NCBI GenBank assembly: GCA_025677825.1 | Contig: JAIXMO010000005.1 | Coordinates: forward strand, 62,001-126,000 | Reading direction: 5' to 3' | From: Helicostylum pulchrum | Taxonomy: Eukaryota; Mucoromycota; Mucoromycetes; Mucorales; Mucoraceae | DNA: 64,000 nt | Shown: positions 20,964 through 63,052 of the stretch, one piece after another | Layout of the letters: the number at the start of each line of letters is the position of its first letter | Position numbering within the stretch: the stretch's first letter is position 1 | Position numbers and translations under genes: made by a program | Notes under the pieces: generated by a model | Database searches by the model: none | Told to the model about the DNA's origin: nothing | The model's input: only the letters and a program-made list of their open reading frames with translations

Positions 20964-22152
20964 TTAAATGTTTCCAATAGAATACATATTCTCAAGTGCT
21001 TGCTTTTGTAATACACCTTGTTGGAAACTATAAAAATTTTTAGTACAACTTTCAAAACGGTTACACTTTTATTTATTACTTACGTTCGGAGCTGCTCGTT
21101 TTCCTGTACAAGACGTTCAAGCTCAGCCAATATTGTCATTTGAGTAGACTTTAAATGTTGGATGTGTTGAACAGCTGGGCAAAAAAAGTTAGCAACAAAA
21201 AAAGAGGTTTCAAAAAAAAAAGGTCTCAAACTTACTTCTGTGCAACAAGGTGACCTTGCTCATTTTCTTGTTCAAACAAGCAGGTAATTCAGTACGCAAA
21301 TCCTCGAAACCGTCCTTGATTTGGGCGCGACGCTTTTGTTCAGATTGGATATGAATTTGGCGTCTTAATTCAGTGACATTGGAAGCACTATCTTGCTGTC
21401 TAAAATAAAAAAAGTACTTTTTATAAGTATATATAAATAGTAGTAATAGTAGTAACAACTTACTCAACTTTTTGCTTGCGAGAAGGACGTTGGTCGTCTT
21501 CTTCATCATCCTCAGAAGAGGATGAAGACGAGGAAGAGAACTTGGCCTTGTCATCATCTTCTAATCTATTTCTCTTCTTATTATTAATGCGATGAGTAGT
21601 AGGTTGCTCAAAAGATTCCTTAGAATATTGAAGAAACTCGGGATAAAAGGATTCAGGCAATGCTGAAGCCTTTGCGATAGTTTCATTCAAATAAGCAGTA
21701 GCAGCAGCAGAAGTGTTACTGGACATACTGCTGGTGGAATGGATAGTTGAGCTAGAAGAAGATTGAACTAGTTGAGGAGGCATTTGATGATGTTGAGGGT
21801 AAAGAGGTGCGGATAATCCAGACATTAATGAGTCGGGACTACCGGGTTGATGGTGACCATGCATAGAATATGAAGGACTAGTAATAAAAGGCTCACCGTA
21901 AATAACGCCACTACTAGATAAGGGTGAAGCAGAGGGAGAAGATACAATGGTAGATGCATAAAAAGGTGACACTAAAAAAAAACCAGAATAAATTAGTTTG
22001 ATGTACATATTAAAACAAGCTCGTATAAATACTTTACCAGGATACATTAAACCGTTTTGTTGCTCAAGTTCCATTTTGGGCATGTATTGCTGTTGTTGTT
22101 GGGTAACAGGGCAATCATGAAGATATTCGGAAGACCAATGGATTTTGTTCAT
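20964..22152 (-). CDS. bHLH-leucine-zipper transcription factor (MLX-like)
   Basis: Five exons on the minus strand: 22152-22038, 21971-21464, 21399-21236, 21174-21084, 21027-20964 (313 residues). The first 170 residues are Gln/Ser/Pro-rich, then an acidic Ser run (SSSSSSSSEDDEEDD) and a basic nuclear signal (RPSRKQKVE). The basic region RRQIHIQSEQKRRAQIK keeps the His-Glu-Arg triad that reads CANNTG E-boxes, with Arg for CACGTG. Helix-loop-helix: DGFEDLRTELP, a loop with NKKMSKVTLLHR, then TVQHIQHLKSTQ continuing into a short zipper (LAELERLVQENEQLR). The layout resembles MLX/INO4-type dimerising bHLHZ factors; target genes are unknown. Exons 4-5 are short and were found only through phase continuity. 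Confidence 0.88.
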
Positions 22153-55062: not shown

Positions 55063-56206
55063 TTAATTACGTTGTAGACCATACGACATAGTGCTTATAT
55101 CATAAGCATTAGAGACAGTAGGCTTATCTAACCATTGAACAAGGTATTGCGTTTTTAAGACATCACCGTTACAGGTAGAATCATCTACCTTCAATAATTC
55201 ATAATGTCCGATGTCACTGACTCGAATAGAAGCATTATGATCAATAAAACGTTCTGTCCTCTTACTATTGTCTCCCAACTCGACATTACGATAAGTAACA
55301 AACCAAGACCTTTCACCAGTAAGACGAATAGATAAACTAGTAGTCGTATCTTTAGTAATTTCAACCTTGCGAACATTTTCACCATTGGTATCGAAGGAAA
55401 CAGTAGGACGGTCACTACGCACATAAATAGTGAAATCGGGAGAGTCTAAATCCTTGACGCAGTCATTAGCATCTTCAATCTTTACAAGAGAAACAACATG
55501 ATGACCAGCACGACTAAAGGGAACTAACATGATTTTATACCTACTTCCCTCCACCTTATCCGAATAGATCTGACCCGCATGGGTCCAAGATAATTCAAAG
55601 GGACCAGTACCACATAAATCAACATCCACTGAAATATCTTCACCAGGACAAGTACGAAGAACACGACGAAGACTAAAATCAAACTTGGCATCAGGTGGAG
55701 GATGGACACTTTGTTTAATAGGTGCAGTTTGAGTAGTCTGGTATTTATGATGTAAATCACCGAAAGAATGGAAATCGTAAGAATATTCACCGCTGGAACT
55801 AGGCAAGTAATAAAATATATAACGAGAACGATCAACGTATTCTCTTTTTATTTCAACCACAGTCGTGGAGCTGTTATTTTGCTTTGTAATAATGTAATCG
55901 AGGACATAAGGTGGTGCACCTTCAAATATAGCTATAAACTTTGTACCGATTTCACTATAGCCAGCACATTTAGAGGCAATAGGCATAGCGCTTAATTTAA
56001 AAATAGGTAATTCAGGCTGACAACTAGAAGAGGACATGTCATAACCAACACAATATAACAAGCGTCAATCAAACACCATTTGGGTATAATTCCATTGTAC
56101 TGTTCCGGATTAGTAGCATAGTATACAGCTAAAATATCCTCCACTTCCAAGACTGTAAAACAACAAGGATGCCAATAGCCAAGTGGAATTGACGGTTAAA
56201 TCCCAT
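55063..56206 (-). pseudogene. POM152: Truncated POM152 nucleoporin fragment
   Basis: An intronless 332-codon frame (56061-55063) encodes Ig-like luminal repeats of the pore-membrane nucleoporin Pom152. Examples are RVLRTCPGEDISVDVDLCGT, GPFELSWTHAGQ, HHVVSLVKIEDANDCVKDL, LRLTGERSWFVTYRNVELG, GHYELLKVDDSTCNGDVL, and YLVQWLDKPTV. It stops after GLQRN, where full-length family members continue with further repeats. Upstream, 56206-56062 encodes a broken N-terminal membrane part (FNRQFHLAIGILVVLQSWK, then in another frame VEDILAVYYATNPEQYNG). The middle membrane segments and first repeats (several hundred residues) are missing. Full Pom152 is about 1,200-1,300 residues, so this is a deleted and truncated copy. 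A functional locus is presumably elsewhere. Confidence 0.75.
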
Positions 56207-57421: not shown

Positions 57422-58427
57422 TTAAAAAAGGTTTATTAGTTTACCGCGCGGTCCATTCTTTTCAAAATGAAAGCTTACCTTTAAACATCGTAGTCTTTTC
57501 TTTTTAACCCCTTCAACAGGGGAAAAGGCCACTTCTTGAATGCCTGTAAGAACAGCAGACTCTTTCACTCTACCGATAATACTAAACTTTACATATAAAG
57601 TCCTGTTGAAAACTAAGCCAATGAGACTTTGTGGTGGTGTAATCAACAAAGAAGCTGTCTCTTCACGAATAACGTTCTTGATGCTAGCTGGTGATGTTAT
57701 CATCCATGCTACTTCTTTCGTAGAATTTTCATTATAACTTGAGTTTATTTTCTTTTCTGGTACTAGAGATATTTCAGCTTCTTCTTTTCGTTGTCCGGCT
57801 TCATCGTCTTTACGGAAGTCATCTTCTTTTTCTTCTGTATCATTCTTGCTTTCACTTAACTCCGTATTTTCTCGGTCTGCCGCAATAACCGATGCACCGG
57901 AGCAATCAAACATATGTAGTGGAATAAAAGATAGGATGTTCCACGTCAATTTGAAACTGTTGACATCTTGTGTAATATTAACGCCTTTAACAACGACTTC
58001 AACTTTTTTACAGCCATAACGGTTAAAGTACCAGTTTCAAAACTGGAAGCTTCTACAGCATTACATTCTTCCTTATCAGCAGCGGCATTAACAGCTTGAT
58101 CGGTACGATCGTAAACTACACGAATGTTACCTTATTCTTGATATATCTCAGTTATGGAGTATATTCGTAGTTATATAAAGGCACAGCAGTATCGGGTTGA
58201 TAGGATGGGCCTTCTTCTTGATGTTTACAAGTATCTGGAATATCAACAGCAACGTTCATTTGACTTATTTGCTTTAAGTATTGGTAAAATACAGTCTTTC
58301 TGAACTTCTTTGCGTTGTGGTCAAGACAACGGGAGGCCTTCATTTCTTGTTTATATTCAGTTCTGATTTTGCGCGGCTCGACGCGTTGTGCACTGCATCT
58401 TTCAGCTCGGTTTTGACAATCAGTCAT
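57422..58427 (-). pseudogene. Decaying gene of unknown function, left copy
   Basis: A 91-codon start (58427-58152: MTDCQNRAERCSAQRVEPRK..CLDHNAKKFRKTVFYQYLKQI) runs to a stop. After a frameshift and one further stop the sequence continues as protein-like text (NIRVVYDRTDQAVNAAADKE; VEVVVKGVNITQDVNSFKLTW). A clean 175-codon frame (57949-57422) with an acidic linker and LVFNRTLYVKFSIIGRVKES follows. Either a broken gene or one with unusual splicing. The alternating beta-strand-like segments suggest a beta-sandwich, but I do not recognise the family. The 5' part is inside the inverted duplication, the 3' part outside it. Confidence 0.5.
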
Positions 58428-58779
58428 TATGTAACTCGAAAAAAGATTAGAGAGTGTGTGTGCGTTTGAGAAAAAAAAAAATTAACAGAGAAGGGGAGAC
58501 TGTGCAAGAAAAAAAAAAAATCCGTTACAGTATGAAAAAAACGACTCATCATTTTAAAAACACAAACGTCTATATGGTTCTTCTTTCTGTTTTTTTTTAT
58601 AAAGAGAGATTCATTATAATCAACACTCGTACACAAATGGATCGTCAATAGGTGTCAAGTCTCCCTACCCTGTCAACAAACCATTCTGCCAAAACGCGAT
58701 GTCCATTTTTTTATTTTACTTTTAGCGCCTGCGCCACCCTACACTTACCTATTCACATGAATATCAAAAGTTCTCACCA

Positions 58780-59028
58780 TTAAAAGTAATGACAGGCTGT
58801 AGATATAAAAAAAAAAAAAAATGGAACCCGATAGGTGGGTAAGGTGTTACAAACCCGTAACAGTCTGATTAAAATCAAATTTGATTGATCGATTAGAGTA
58901 AACAAATACGGAGCGACTTGACCTCCCTTTTTTTTTGTGTACTTATAAAACAGCTTTTCAGGCGTATGACTTCCGTTATCTTTGGGGCACGAGAGATAAT
59001 AGGACTTTCCCCCACTTTCTATTTCCAT
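58780..59028 (-). CDS. Small ORF in left arm (uncertain)
   Basis: 82 codons beginning MEIESGGKSYYLSCPKDNG; the first 45 residues look protein-like, the end runs into a homopolymer (FFFFF). It has no family likeness and could be a first exon. An identical copy is at 61982-62230. Confidence 0.25.
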   Translation of the reverse strand: MEIESGGKSYYLSCPKDNGSHTPEKLFYKYTKKKGGQVAPYLFTLIDQSNLILIRLLRVCNTLPTYRVPFFFFFISTACHYF

Positions 59029-59113
59029 TTATATTCACTGTTAAAATGACTTTTATATAGTGTATAATATATATAAAAAAAAAAGACAATATATGTTTAA
59101 ACAAATAATTTTA

Positions 59114-59775
59114 TTACAGATGTTGTATTGCGGCGATGAGCCCGAAGGCCAAATTGAGAACAAACCGCAAGTAGTTGGGGTTAAGCCCTTCTACTTGCAG
59201 CTTTTGGTACAAAGCTTTCGCTGTTGAAGCGAAAGCCTTTGCTCTGGATATGAGCGTAAAAAGGAGTGGGAGGGGATCAAACGGACGGAAAAGAGAGGCA
59301 GCAGGAGGAGGAACCATAAGGCCTTTTGGTTCGTCAGCCAAAAGACAAACACTCGGAGCAAATGCTTCTTGGAACAAACCCTTGGGAGTCAAGGGTTTAC
59401 AGACAACGGAGGGAAAAAGAGAGACAGGAGGAGAAACGACCATTAAGCCTTTTGGCTCGTCAGCCAAAAGACAAATAACCGGAGCGAGTATTTCTTGTAA
59501 CAAACCCTTGGGGGTCAAGGGTTTACAAACCTTTTGAGGAAAGGTTTCTTCCCAAACAGGGGCGGAGGCGAAATTTGGTACAAAAGTAAAAAATACTTTT
59601 AAACTGGAGGAAAACCAGGAAGCTACAAAATAATAAAATGTTCATGGTTACCATTTATTTCTAGAAGAAAAAAAAATTACTTACAACGAACGTAATAAAG
59701 AGCCGTTGAACTGTTGCTCAACAGCGGGAAAAAGGAAGCGCAGAGGAAGACGTAGACAAGGTTTATAAGCAACAT
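59114..59775 (-). CDS. Predicted secreted repeat protein, left copy
   Basis: Mirror copy of the gene at 61235-61896, with exons 59775-59685 and 59622-59114 (199 residues), identical as far as I can compare. See the right copy for domains. Its exon 2 is built of hairpin-forming DNA (59140-59547). Confidence 0.5.
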
Positions 59776-60342
59776 TGAGTATAGATATAATTTATGAATA
59801 ATAAAGAAAAAGAAAAGAAAAACAGATAAAGAAACAGCTCTTAAATACCAAAAAAAAAAAAAAAAAAAAAAGAGGGATGACCTCATCACATACTGTTTTT
59901 TTTTTGGTAAAGCACAAGAATACCTTTATCTTGCATCAGCGCTTACTAAGTATGGTGACATATTGAATTGCTTTCATCTACTTTAACGGACACTGTTAAG
60001 ATATACGCGTTTGCATAATGCAGGAATTTATTTGTGACACGCGAAGTAATCAAACTTCACTCCCACTTTCTGTTTCTATATACTTACATAAGATGTTTTA
60101 CATTTTTTTTTTCAATAGATTATGATAGTTGTTATACTAAGTTTAAAAGAATGAAATAAATTTATTGTAGATAAAGTTGCTGGGTATAACGATTTGTTTT
60201 TCTTGAATAGGAAAACCGAAAACAAGTTTTGGTATAAAAAAAAGGCGCTACATATGAAGCGAGAAAAGTGCTTCATGGCGTTTTTTTACTACTCTGGATT
60301 ACTAATCCTTTGAATATCTACGATTTCATCAAGTTTGTCAAA

Positions 60343-60420
60343 AAAAAATCACGAAAAAAAAAATCACGAAAAAAAAAAGTAAAAAAAAAAAAAAAATCAC
60401 AAAATAAAATCACGAAAAAA
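60343..60420. repeat. Minisatellite (A-run + TCACG units)
   Basis: Four or five imperfect units of A-run plus TCACG / TCACA occur in the spacer, seen directly. Confidence 0.7.
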
Positions 60421-60638
60421 GAACTGCAAATACTTTCGCTTGCTCTTTTTTTTAATCTTACTCTAGTATTGCCTTATCTTGTACCAGAGTATGGATTACA
60501 CTGATGCTACGCAGAGTCAGACAAAGGATTAAGAGTGAATATAAGTGAATAAAGAAAAGGAAATTTCCTTAATTTGTACTAGTTATTTTCCTTTTCTTTT
60601 TCTTTTTTTTTTTGCACGTTTTGTTTACTTTGTTAAAA

Positions 60639-60917
60639 ATGATTTTACAGCTTTTTTTTTTTGTTACTCTCTCCATCGTTATATACCTAATTATACCACT
60701 TGATACATACTTATCATCCACATTAACACAATATATGAGAATACTAGGTAAGCGAAAGTATTTTTTTACGAGTAAAAATAAAATAGGTCTAATTTGTACT
60801 ACAATCTCATTTTGCATGATTTGTTTATTTTGCCGCTTTTTTTTTTTAATTCTCTTTGCCTCCCTAAATTATTCAAGTCCAACAGATATTAGCGTTTCAT
60901 ATTCGAAAAATAAATAA
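60639..60917 (+). CDS. Possible small membrane protein or first exon (uncertain)
   Basis: The ATG follows a pyrimidine-rich leader typical of genes in this window. MILQLFFFVTLSIVIYLIIP forms a signal-anchor, then DTYLSSTLTQYMRILG up to a good donor (GTAAGC at 60749). If spliced there, the rest of the open frame would be intron; no convincing next exon was found. No family recognised. Confidence 0.25.
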   Translation: MILQLFFFVTLSIVIYLIIPLDTYLSSTLTQYMRILGKRKYFFTSKNKIGLICTTISFCMICLFCRFFFLILFASLNYSSPTDISVSYSKNK

Positions 60918-61234
60918 TAATGATGTAGTTAAAGCATAGTTTCCAAAACTTCTTTTTCTATTTACAATGCTGTGGTCAGTCAGTTTTTTTTGTAAAAAAA
61001 GATTTTTTTTTCCGTTAAAGTAAACATATAGATGGAAGCAATTCAATATGTCACCATACTTAGTAAGCGCTGATGCAAGATAAAGGTATTCTTGTGCTTT
61101 ACCAAAAAAAAAACCAGTATGTGATGAGGTCATCCCTCTTTTTTTTTTTTTTTTTTTTTTGGTATTTAAGAGCTGTTTCTTTATCTGTTTTTCTTTTCTT
61201 TTTCTTTATTATTCATAAATTATATCTATACTCA

Positions 61235-61896
61235 ATGTTGCTTATAAACCTTGTCTACGTCTTCCTCTGCGCTTCCTTTTTCCCGCTGTTGAGCAACAGT
61301 TCAACGGCTCTTTATTACGTTCGTTGTAAGTAATTTTTTTTTCTTCTAGAAATAAATGGTAACCATGAACATTTTATTATTTTGTAGCTTCCTGGTTTTC
61401 CTCCAGTTTAAAAGTATTTTTTACTTTTGTACCAAATTTCGCCTCCGCCCCTGTTTGGGAAGAAACCTTTCCTCAAAAGGTTTGTAAACCCTTGACCCCC
61501 AAGGGTTTGTTACAAGAAATACTCGCTCCGGTTATTTGTCTTTTGGCTGACGAGCCAAAAGGCTTAATGGTCGTTTCTCCTCCTGTCTCTCTTTTTCCCT
61601 CCGTTGTCTGTAAACCCTTGACTCCCAAGGGTTTGTTCCAAGAAGCATTTGCTCCGAGTGTTTGTCTTTTGGCTGACGAACCAAAAGGCCTTATGGTTCC
61701 TCCTCCTGCTGCCTCTCTTTTCCGTCCGTTTGATCCCCTCCCACTCCTTTTTACGCTCATATCCAGAGCAAAGGCTTTCGCTTCAACAGCGAAAGCTTTG
61801 TACCAAAAGCTGCAAGTAGAAGGGCTTAACCCCAACTACTTGCGGTTTGTTCTCAATTTGGCCTTCGGGCTCATCGCCGCAATACAACATCTGTAA
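61235..61896 (+). CDS. Predicted secreted repeat protein, right copy
   Basis: Two exons, 61235-61325 and 61388-61896, with clean GTAAGT and TTTTGTAG splice signals, give 199 residues. It starts with a signal peptide (MLLINLVYVFLCASFFPLLS). The body holds two direct repeats of about 40 residues (VCKPLTPKGLLQEILAP..CLLADEPKGLMVV and VCKPLTPKGLFQEAFAP..CLLADEPKGLMVP) separated by Pro/Ser-rich linkers. An Ala/Lys helix (SRAKAFASTAKALYQKLQ) and a hydrophobic end (FVLNLAFGLIAAIQHL) follow. I recognise no family. The DNA of exon 2 is far more G+C-rich than its surroundings and is almost entirely palindromic modules, so the ORF may be a by-product of structured DNA/RNA rather than a protein gene. Confidence 0.5.
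61463..61870. other. Array of eight hairpins inside the repeat-protein exon
   Basis: Stems read directly: 61463-61470/61476-61483 (8 bp), 61486-61494/61500-61508 (9 bp), 61540-61548/61553-61561 (9 bp, GACG loop), and 61612-61620/61626-61634 (9 bp). Then 61666-61674/61679-61687 (one mismatch), 61769-61782/61788-61800 (13 bp with one bulge), 61812-61819/61836-61843 (8 bp, with an inner GGG/CCC), and 61861-61863/61868-61870 with a C(TTCG)G tetraloop. The mirror copy is at 59140-59547. This density cannot be explained by codon use. Confidence 0.85.
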
Positions 61897-61981
61897 TAAA
61901 ATTATTTGTTTAAACATATATTGTCTTTTTTTTTTATATATATTATACACTATATAAAAGTCATTTTAACAGTGAATATAA

Positions 61982-62230
61982 ATGGAAATAGAAAGTGGGG
62001 GAAAGTCCTATTATCTCTCGTGCCCCAAAGATAACGGAAGTCATACGCCTGAAAAGCTGTTTTATAAGTACACAAAAAAAAAGGGAGGTCAAGTCGCTCC
62101 GTATTTGTTTACTCTAATCGATCAATCAAATTTGATTTTAATCAGACTGTTACGGGTTTGTAACACCTTACCCACCTATCGGGTTCCATTTTTTTTTTTT
62201 TTTATATCTACAGCCTGTCATTACTTTTAA
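61982..62230 (+). CDS. Small ORF in right arm (uncertain)
   Basis: Identical mirror of the ORF at 58780-59028. Same reservations. Confidence 0.25.
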   Translation: MEIESGGKSYYLSCPKDNGSHTPEKLFYKYTKKKGGQVAPYLFTLIDQSNLILIRLLRVCNTLPTYRVPFFFFFISTACHYF

Positions 62231-62582
62231 TGGTGAGAACTTTTGATATTCATGTGAATAGGTAAGTGTAGGGTGGCGCAGGCGCTAAAAGTAAAATAAA
62301 AAAATGGACATCGCGTTTTGGCAGAATGGTTTGTTGACAGGGTAGGGAGACTTGACACCTATTGACGATCCATTTGTGTACGAGTGTTGATTATAATGAA
62401 TCTCTCTTTATAAAAAAAAACAGAAAGAAGAACCATATAGACGTTTGTGTTTTTAAAATGATGAGTCGTTTTTTTCATACTGTAACGGATTTTTTTTTTT
62501 TCTTGCACAGTCTCCCCTTCTCTGTTAATTTTTTTTTTTCTCAAACGCACACACACTCTCTAATCTTTTTTCGAGTTACATA

Positions 62583-63052
62583 ATGACTGATTGTCAAAAC
62601 CGAGCTGAAAGATGCAGTGCACAACGCGTCGAGCCGCGCAAAATCAGAACTGAATATAAACAAGAAATGAAGGCCTCCCGTTGTCTTGACCACAACGCAA
62701 AGAAGTTCAGAAAGACTGTATTTTACCAATACTTAAAGCAAATAAGTCAAATGAACGTTGCTGTTGATATTCCAGATACTTGTAAACATCAAGAAGAAGG
62801 CCCATCCTATCAACCCGATACTGCTGTGCCTTTATATAACTACGAATATACTCCATAACTGAGATATATCAAGAATAAGGTAACATTCGTGTAGTTTACG
62901 ATTGTACCGATCAGGTTGTTGAAAATACTCACGTTACTGATATCACTGAAGATTCTTTCTCTATTCAAACCGATATTTATGTAGCTTTAGAAAATACTGA
63001 AAAAGCCACTGAAGGTATTATTGTTGATGAATGTCAAAAGTAGAATATTTTT
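62583..63052 (+). pseudogene. Decaying gene of unknown function, right copy
   Basis: Same 91-codon start and the same stop (62856-62858) as the left copy. Beyond the stop the frame with NIRVVYDCTDQVVENTHVTD and SFSIQTDIYVALENTEKA stays open to a stop at 63050-63052. After the arm boundary its sequence no longer matches the left copy, though both remain protein-like. The following 63053-63129 (YFSIQSDVTRPLTTG) may be a further shifted piece. Confidence 0.45.

What the first reader, a model, noticed from the sequence alone, without database searches (positions are those of the whole stretch)
61463..61870. Coding exon made of eight consecutive hairpins (mirror copy 59140-59547)
Within 410 bp, stems of 8, 9, 9, 9, 8+1, 13, 8 and 3 bp (the last closed by a TTCG tetraloop) follow one another, two of them in repeated pairs. 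The surrounding DNA is AT-rich and has nothing similar. The open frame is retained, so the element is either a protein gene assembled from palindromic modules or a structured RNA/mobile hairpin family that happens to be open. Fungal organelle genomes are known to carry mobile hairpin elements; a nuclear array embedded in a signal-peptide ORF would be new to me.
Basis: partly seen in the sequence, partly recalled or inferred. Interest (0 to 1): 0.75.

Follow-up and report, generated by a model that had tools for sequence, protein, structure and literature searches.

The report
Fungal gene built of RNA hairpins
A small mould gene of unknown function, found in many copies, carries a row of short hairpins inside its protein-coding part; several of these keep their pairing while the copies diverge, and some have flipped their loops, so the sequence seems to be shaped as RNA and as protein at once.

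Summary
The window lies on C114 of the Helicostylum pulchrum (Mucorales) assembly. The hairpins fill exon 2 of a two-exon, 199-aa gene; the mirror copy is the other arm of a ~1.9-kb inverted duplication. The genome holds at least 14 family copies; protein searches found relatives only in H. pulchrum and Thamnidium elegans. It is a protein gene: dN/dS is 0.29-0.52 in 20 of 21 comparisons of intact copies. The hairpins are not a by-product of the protein: 7 of 7 intact copies tested fold better than every synonymous-codon shuffle, one of them a paralogue 35% identical in protein; 14 control coding stretches do not. Stems H1, H5 and the spacer stem keep pairing through two-sided changes; H2 does not in the most distant copy. 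Three exact loop inversions mark template switching. The three stem modules searched for occur only inside family copies, so mobile hairpins are not supported. Best reading: a structured protein-coding mRNA whose stems are made, perfected and flipped by template switching and probably kept by selection on the sense RNA. What hairpins or protein do is unknown; no expression data or T. elegans DNA could be reached.

The parts
61235..61325 (+). exon 1, hydrophobic N-terminus MLLINLVYVFLCASFFPLLSNSSTALYYVR
   Evidence: deposited models P0001 and P0002 of paralogues splice at the same place
61326..61387 (+). intron, GTAAGT...TTGTAG, 62 bp
   Evidence: donor and acceptor present at the same place in the other intact copies
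61388..61896 (+). exon 2, the hairpin exon, to the stop codon
61286..61299 (+). exon-1 hairpin CTGTT(GAGC)AACAG
   Evidence: C-G to G-C end pair in L022 (P 0.074, not significant)
61463..61483 (+). hairpin H0, 8 bp
61485..61509 (+). hairpin H1 (unit a), 9 bp plus a T-G end pair
   Evidence: 9 of 9 pairs kept in L045 with 6 bases changed
61517..61537 (+). spacer hairpin (unit a)
   Evidence: lost in L020, L022, L023, L024
61538..61563 (+). hairpin H2 (unit a), 11 bp
   Evidence: core inverted in L020 and in the second H2 of L023/L024
61612..61634 (+). hairpin H1 (unit b)
61643..61663 (+). spacer hairpin (unit b)
61664..61689 (+). hairpin H2 (unit b), one broken pair
61771..61799 (+). hairpin H5, 12 bp, loop TCAAC (inverted in L021)
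61807..61848 (+). hairpin H6, 13 bp plus inner 3 bp
61861..61870 (+). GCC-TTCG-GGC hairpin
59114..59775 (-). second copy of the gene (exon 1 59685-59775, intron 59623-59684, exon 2 59114-59622), placed by the mirror relation x to 121010-x
58090..59980 (.). left arm of the inverted duplication
   Evidence: 99.7% identical to the right arm
61029..62920 (.). right arm of the inverted duplication

Best explanation
A member of a multicopy protein gene family, so far seen only in Helicostylum and Thamnidium, whose exon 2 is read twice: as a short protein with hydrophobic ends and as an array of 8-10 self-contained mRNA hairpins. Shown: purifying selection on the protein, structure beyond what protein and codon use require, paired changes in several stems, exact loop inversions. 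Inferred: during replication the nascent strand folds on a hairpin and copies the opposite arm (intrastrand template switching), which perfects stems, makes two-sided changes in one event and flips loops without shifting the frame; selection on the sense RNA (translation speed, stability or processing of the transcript) then keeps the array. The relative weight of mutation and selection is open.
For: Synonymous-codon shuffles: z -5.83 to -7.61, 0 of 200 in each of 7 of 7 intact copies (the second, mirror-image window copy was not run separately); 14 control coding stretches from five other genes of the window lie between -1.04 and +1.78. Sense fold beats antisense in z in 6 of 6 copies. G-U cells 71 against A-C cells 13 in stems. 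Covariation on A3 (16 rows): 92.0% of cells paired against 24.7-56.2% when slid; 12 cells with two-sided changes against 3.9 shuffled, 0 of 500; A4: 90.4% against 34.9-50.8%; 4 cells against 1.2, 7 of 500. H1 window against L045: 9 of 9 pairs kept with 6 bases changed, P 0.0014; H5 window against L025: 12 of 12 with 7 changed, P 0.00044; spacer stem L017 against L026: 9 of 9 with 5 changed, P 0.0034. Exact inversions: L020 H2 core against L022, L021 H5 core against the window, and H2b against H2a in L023/L024 (letters). dN/dS 0.29-0.52 in 20 of 21 pairs, 0.22-0.43 in non-stem codons of 6 pairs. Template switching as maker and keeper of hairpins, with loop inversion as its mark: PMC8794818 (passages read).
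Against: No expression, RNA or protein data. Two of five covariation measures do not exceed shuffles on A3 or A4 (further pair types 360 and 394 of 500), and pairs changed on both sides are only 20 and 29 of 500. Of 11 stem comparisons that I chose, six have P above 0.05, among them H2 window against L045, which keeps 6 of 11 (P 0.88). The spacer stem is lost in 4 copies. The G-U excess counted by distinct events is 20 to 11, P 0.07. Fewer synonymous changes in stems is not significant (P 0.36 and 0.12). Frameshifted or truncated copies are nearly as well paired as intact ones (unpaired 6.5% against 5.3%), as expected if mutation or recency, not selection, keeps the stems. Antisense folds are also better than most shuffles. 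The L023-L024 pair has dN/dS 1.20 on 5 changes.
Confidence: 0.6

Rival explanations
1. Mutation alone: an ordinary young protein gene in which template switching keeps making and perfecting palindromes; the hairpins have no function as RNA.
For: Three exact loop inversions in 14 copies; broken copies stay paired; deletions end in H2 in L018 unit b and L026; inverted duplications around two copies.
Against: Sense stronger than antisense in 6 of 6 copies and G-U cells over A-C cells are not expected if only DNA symmetry matters; 14 control coding stretches in the same window show nothing of the kind.
Confidence: 0.27
2. DNA-level function: the hairpins extrude as cruciforms or fold on single strands and are used for recombination or amplification of the family.
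For: Copies mostly on one contig (10 of 14), tandem 126-bp units, inverted duplications at the window and C101, breakpoints in H2.
Against: Sense-strand bias; the array is in the coding exon only; most copies have no flanking inverted repeat.
Confidence: 0.08
3. Mobile hairpin elements (as in organelle genomes) that settled in a nuclear gene.
For: Appearance only: GC-rich hairpins in AT-rich DNA.
Against: All 19, 17 and 11 hits to three stem modules are in copies of this gene; stems differ from each other in sequence.
Confidence: 0.03

Closest known systems
Hairpins made and kept by template-switch mutation (PMC8794818, passages read)
   Same: Two-sided changes, stems perfected, exact loop inversions of unchanged length
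   Different: Described there for RNA genes; the term protein-coding does not occur in that text. Here it is a coding exon, and three inversions are seen in one gene family
Ordered structure in coding RNA (known to me mainly from RNA viruses; recalled)
   Same: Row of hairpins through a coding region, above synonymous shuffles
   Different: Nuclear fungal gene; no viral relative in two IMG/VR scans
Repetitive hairpin elements and double-hairpin elements of fungal mitochondria (PMC2800124, passages read)
   Same: Short hairpins, also known inside genes
   Different: Those are dispersed and thought mobile; here modules stay in one gene family
Rickettsia palindromic elements (listing; details recalled)
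   Same: Palindromes within open frames
   Different: Those insert one element into many unrelated genes; here many different palindromes sit in one family

Membership tests
Structured protein-coding mRNA | fold better than synonymous-codon shuffles | tested here: met
   0 of 200-500 shuffles in each of 7 copies
Structured protein-coding mRNA | pairing kept through two-sided changes | tested here: met
   H1, H5, spacer stem; not H2 in L045; some measures not above shuffles
Structured protein-coding mRNA | structure forms in the transcript | not testable with these tools
   no RNA data
Protein-coding gene | dN/dS below 1 between intact copies | tested here: met
   20 of 21 pairs
Template-switch hairpins | exact loop inversion of unchanged length | tested here: met
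   three cases
Mobile hairpin / palindromic elements | same module at unrelated places in the genome | tested here: not met
   three modules
TIR transposon / MITE | terminal inverted repeats around the copies | tested here: not met
   only the C101 copy has 384-bp flanking inverted repeats; 11 other 10-kb loci show none around the gene
Known protein family | match in Pfam or PDB | tested here: not met
   exon-2 part of 134 aa: 0 Pfam families; P0001: 0 PDB chains at E<=1
Known RNA family | Rfam match | tested here: not met
   0 at gathering score in the window and 7 loci

The most novel reading that the evidence does not exclude
The hairpin array is the selected unit and the protein rides on it: replication template switching flips hairpin loops in frame (ST to VE in H5; EE to LR or LQ in H2), a hairpin-driven way to diversify a small, possibly secreted protein without shifting its frame while the RNA fold stays intact.
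Probability: 0.22. Interest if true: 0.82.

Novelty: new variant of a known kind. Interest (0 to 1): 0.58.

Why it matters
It is a natural case, in a nuclear gene and in at least 14 copies of one genome, where compensating changes, loop inversions and protein constraint can be seen on the same bases. That makes it a test bed for the open question whether hairpins in coding DNA persist through selection on RNA or through template-switch mutation, and whether such flips feed protein diversity. I found no paper on this family: searches for Helicostylum pulchrum genome, Thamnidium elegans genome, EDC94DRAFT and related words listed none (listings only).

Tried and rejected
One search ran the codon shuffles in a wrong frame and is discarded; one search replaces it. 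One search used a structure string off by one column; one search replaces it. A test of whether the proteins are unusually able to encode stems was uninformative: even the window protein did not stand out (8 of 40 permutations as high). AlphaFold2 of P0007 with 12 sequences: mean pLDDT 44, no fold search made. Viral origin: 180 pattern matches, none confirmed, and no exact H2 core in IMG/VR. Pfam on neighbouring frames showed only Pom152 domains above cut-off. Reverse open frame (120 aa): not followed; it is what palindromes would give and was not tested as a gene.

Full report
What it is. The window is C114:62001-126000 of a 32.2-Mb genome in 168 contigs. A protein search names it: the best hits are Helicostylum pulchrum hypothetical proteins on a contig of 984,125 bases, the length of C114. 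Exon 1 (61235-61325), a 62-bp GT-AG intron and exon 2 (61388-61896) give 199 aa; deposited models of two paralogues, P0001 and P0002, splice at the same place. The mirror copy at 59140-59547 is the second arm of an inverted duplication, 99.7% identical over 1,892 aligned bases.

Copies. DNA and protein searches of the genome list 14 places, a lower bound: ten on C114 (35, 121, 123, 148, 187, 209, 230, 250, 415 and 589 kb) and one each on C79, C83, C87 and C101. With the one-intron model 8 of 14 are open from end to end (the window pair, L017, L020, L022, L023, L024, L045), 4 are shifted in frame (L018, L019, L021, L025, the last one in its 3' part only) and 2 are cut short (L026, L027). Copies carry one or two 126-bp H1-spacer-H2 units; L023 and L024 carry an extra H2.

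Relatives. Three searches of the protein collection found 5, 12 and 13 proteins, in all 8 of H. pulchrum and 5 of Thamnidium elegans, both Mucoraceae; in the last search only the 7,987 candidates sharing most words were scored. No Pfam family on the exon-2 part, no PDB chain, no Rfam family.

It is a protein gene. Among 7 intact copies dN/dS is 0.29-0.52 in 20 of 21 pairs; the exception, L023-L024, rests on 5 changes. In non-stem codons of 6 chosen pairs it is 0.22-0.43; in stem codons 0.30-0.84, with lower dS in stems in 5 of 6 pairs. A direct test of synonymous constraint in stems is not significant.

It is also structured beyond the protein. Exon 2 of 7 of 7 intact copies beats all 200 synonymous shuffles, z -5.83 to -7.61, including L045, 35% identical to the window protein. 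Fourteen 480-nt coding stretches of five other genes of the window give z -1.04 to +1.78. The sense strand is the stronger one in 6 of 6 copies tested (L024 not included).

How the stems evolve. On 16 aligned H1-spacer-H2 units (L027, without H1, left out) 92.0% of stem cells pair, against 24.7-56.2% with partners slid, and 12 cells carry two-sided changes against 3.9 expected. On 11 H5-H6 rows the figures are 90.4%, 34.9-50.8%, 4 and 1.2. Not all measures exceed the shuffles. The clearest single cases: H1 reads AAACCCTTG/CAAGGGTTT in the window and AAATCCCTC/GAGGGATTT in L045, three pairs changed on both sides and none broken (P 0.0014), at the cost of amino acids (KPLTPKGL to KSLSPRDL); H5 in L025 has 7 bases changed and 12 of 12 pairs (P 0.00044). 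H2 in L045 is a counter-case: 6 of 11 pairs (P 0.88). These 11 comparisons were picked by me and not corrected for number.

Loop inversions. The 12-nt H2 core of L020 is the exact reverse complement of that of L022; the second H2 core of L023/L024 that of the first; the 23-nt H5 core of L021 that of the window. Each changes the protein (EE to LR, EE to LQ, ST to VE) without a shift. PMC8794818, of which I read passages, names loop inversion the strongest mark of template switching and calls it extremely rare together with a compensating change; it counts 69 loop-only inversions in its RNA data.

Mutation or selection. For selection: sense bias and G-U over A-C cells, 71 to 13. Against: by distinct events this is 20 to 11, P 0.07; broken copies are nearly as well paired as intact ones, 6.5% against 5.3% unpaired. 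I therefore hold both processes to be at work and give selection on the sense RNA only a moderate lead.

Across genera. T. elegans DNA could not be reached. From its proteins, 8 of 11 stem places could still be encoded with at least 10 unbroken pairs, 3 of 11 (H1 in P0008 and P0009, H5 in P0009) could not; a wider test was uninformative.

Not mobile hairpins. Three stem modules searched with up to 3 mismatches gave 19, 17 and 11 hits, each inside a family copy, and none for the reversed control patterns.

Noticed in passing
L045 735-1118 and 2345-2728 (C101): The C101 copy of the gene is flanked by 384-bp inverted repeats, 99% identical, a TIR-like layout with no target-site duplication obvious by eye.
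   Followed up: partly
G000:C110:181714-182569: Carries both sides of the C101 surroundings but lacks about 590 bases that hold nearly all of the hairpin gene; the two matches overlap by 7 bases at the junction.
   Followed up: no
window 55063-56061 (-); L021 8147-9696; L018: Pom152-like nucleoporin sequence lies in the duplicated surroundings of several copies.
   Followed up: partly
window 58090-62920: Inverted duplication with ~1.9-kb arms and ~1.05-kb spacer, arms 99.7% identical; recent duplication, gene conversion or assembly error not told apart.
   Followed up: partly
L018 unit b, L026, L027: Deletions in L018 unit b and L026 end within the 3' arm of H2, and L027 loses family similarity just after H2.
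   Followed up: partly
window 62583-62858; L022 5934-6488: A neighbouring open frame (91 aa; 184 aa in L022) travels with the copies; no Pfam family above cut-off for the L022 version.
   Followed up: no
window 21401-21800: Another strongly folding stretch (z -4.17), in a serine-rich open frame on the other strand.
   Followed up: no
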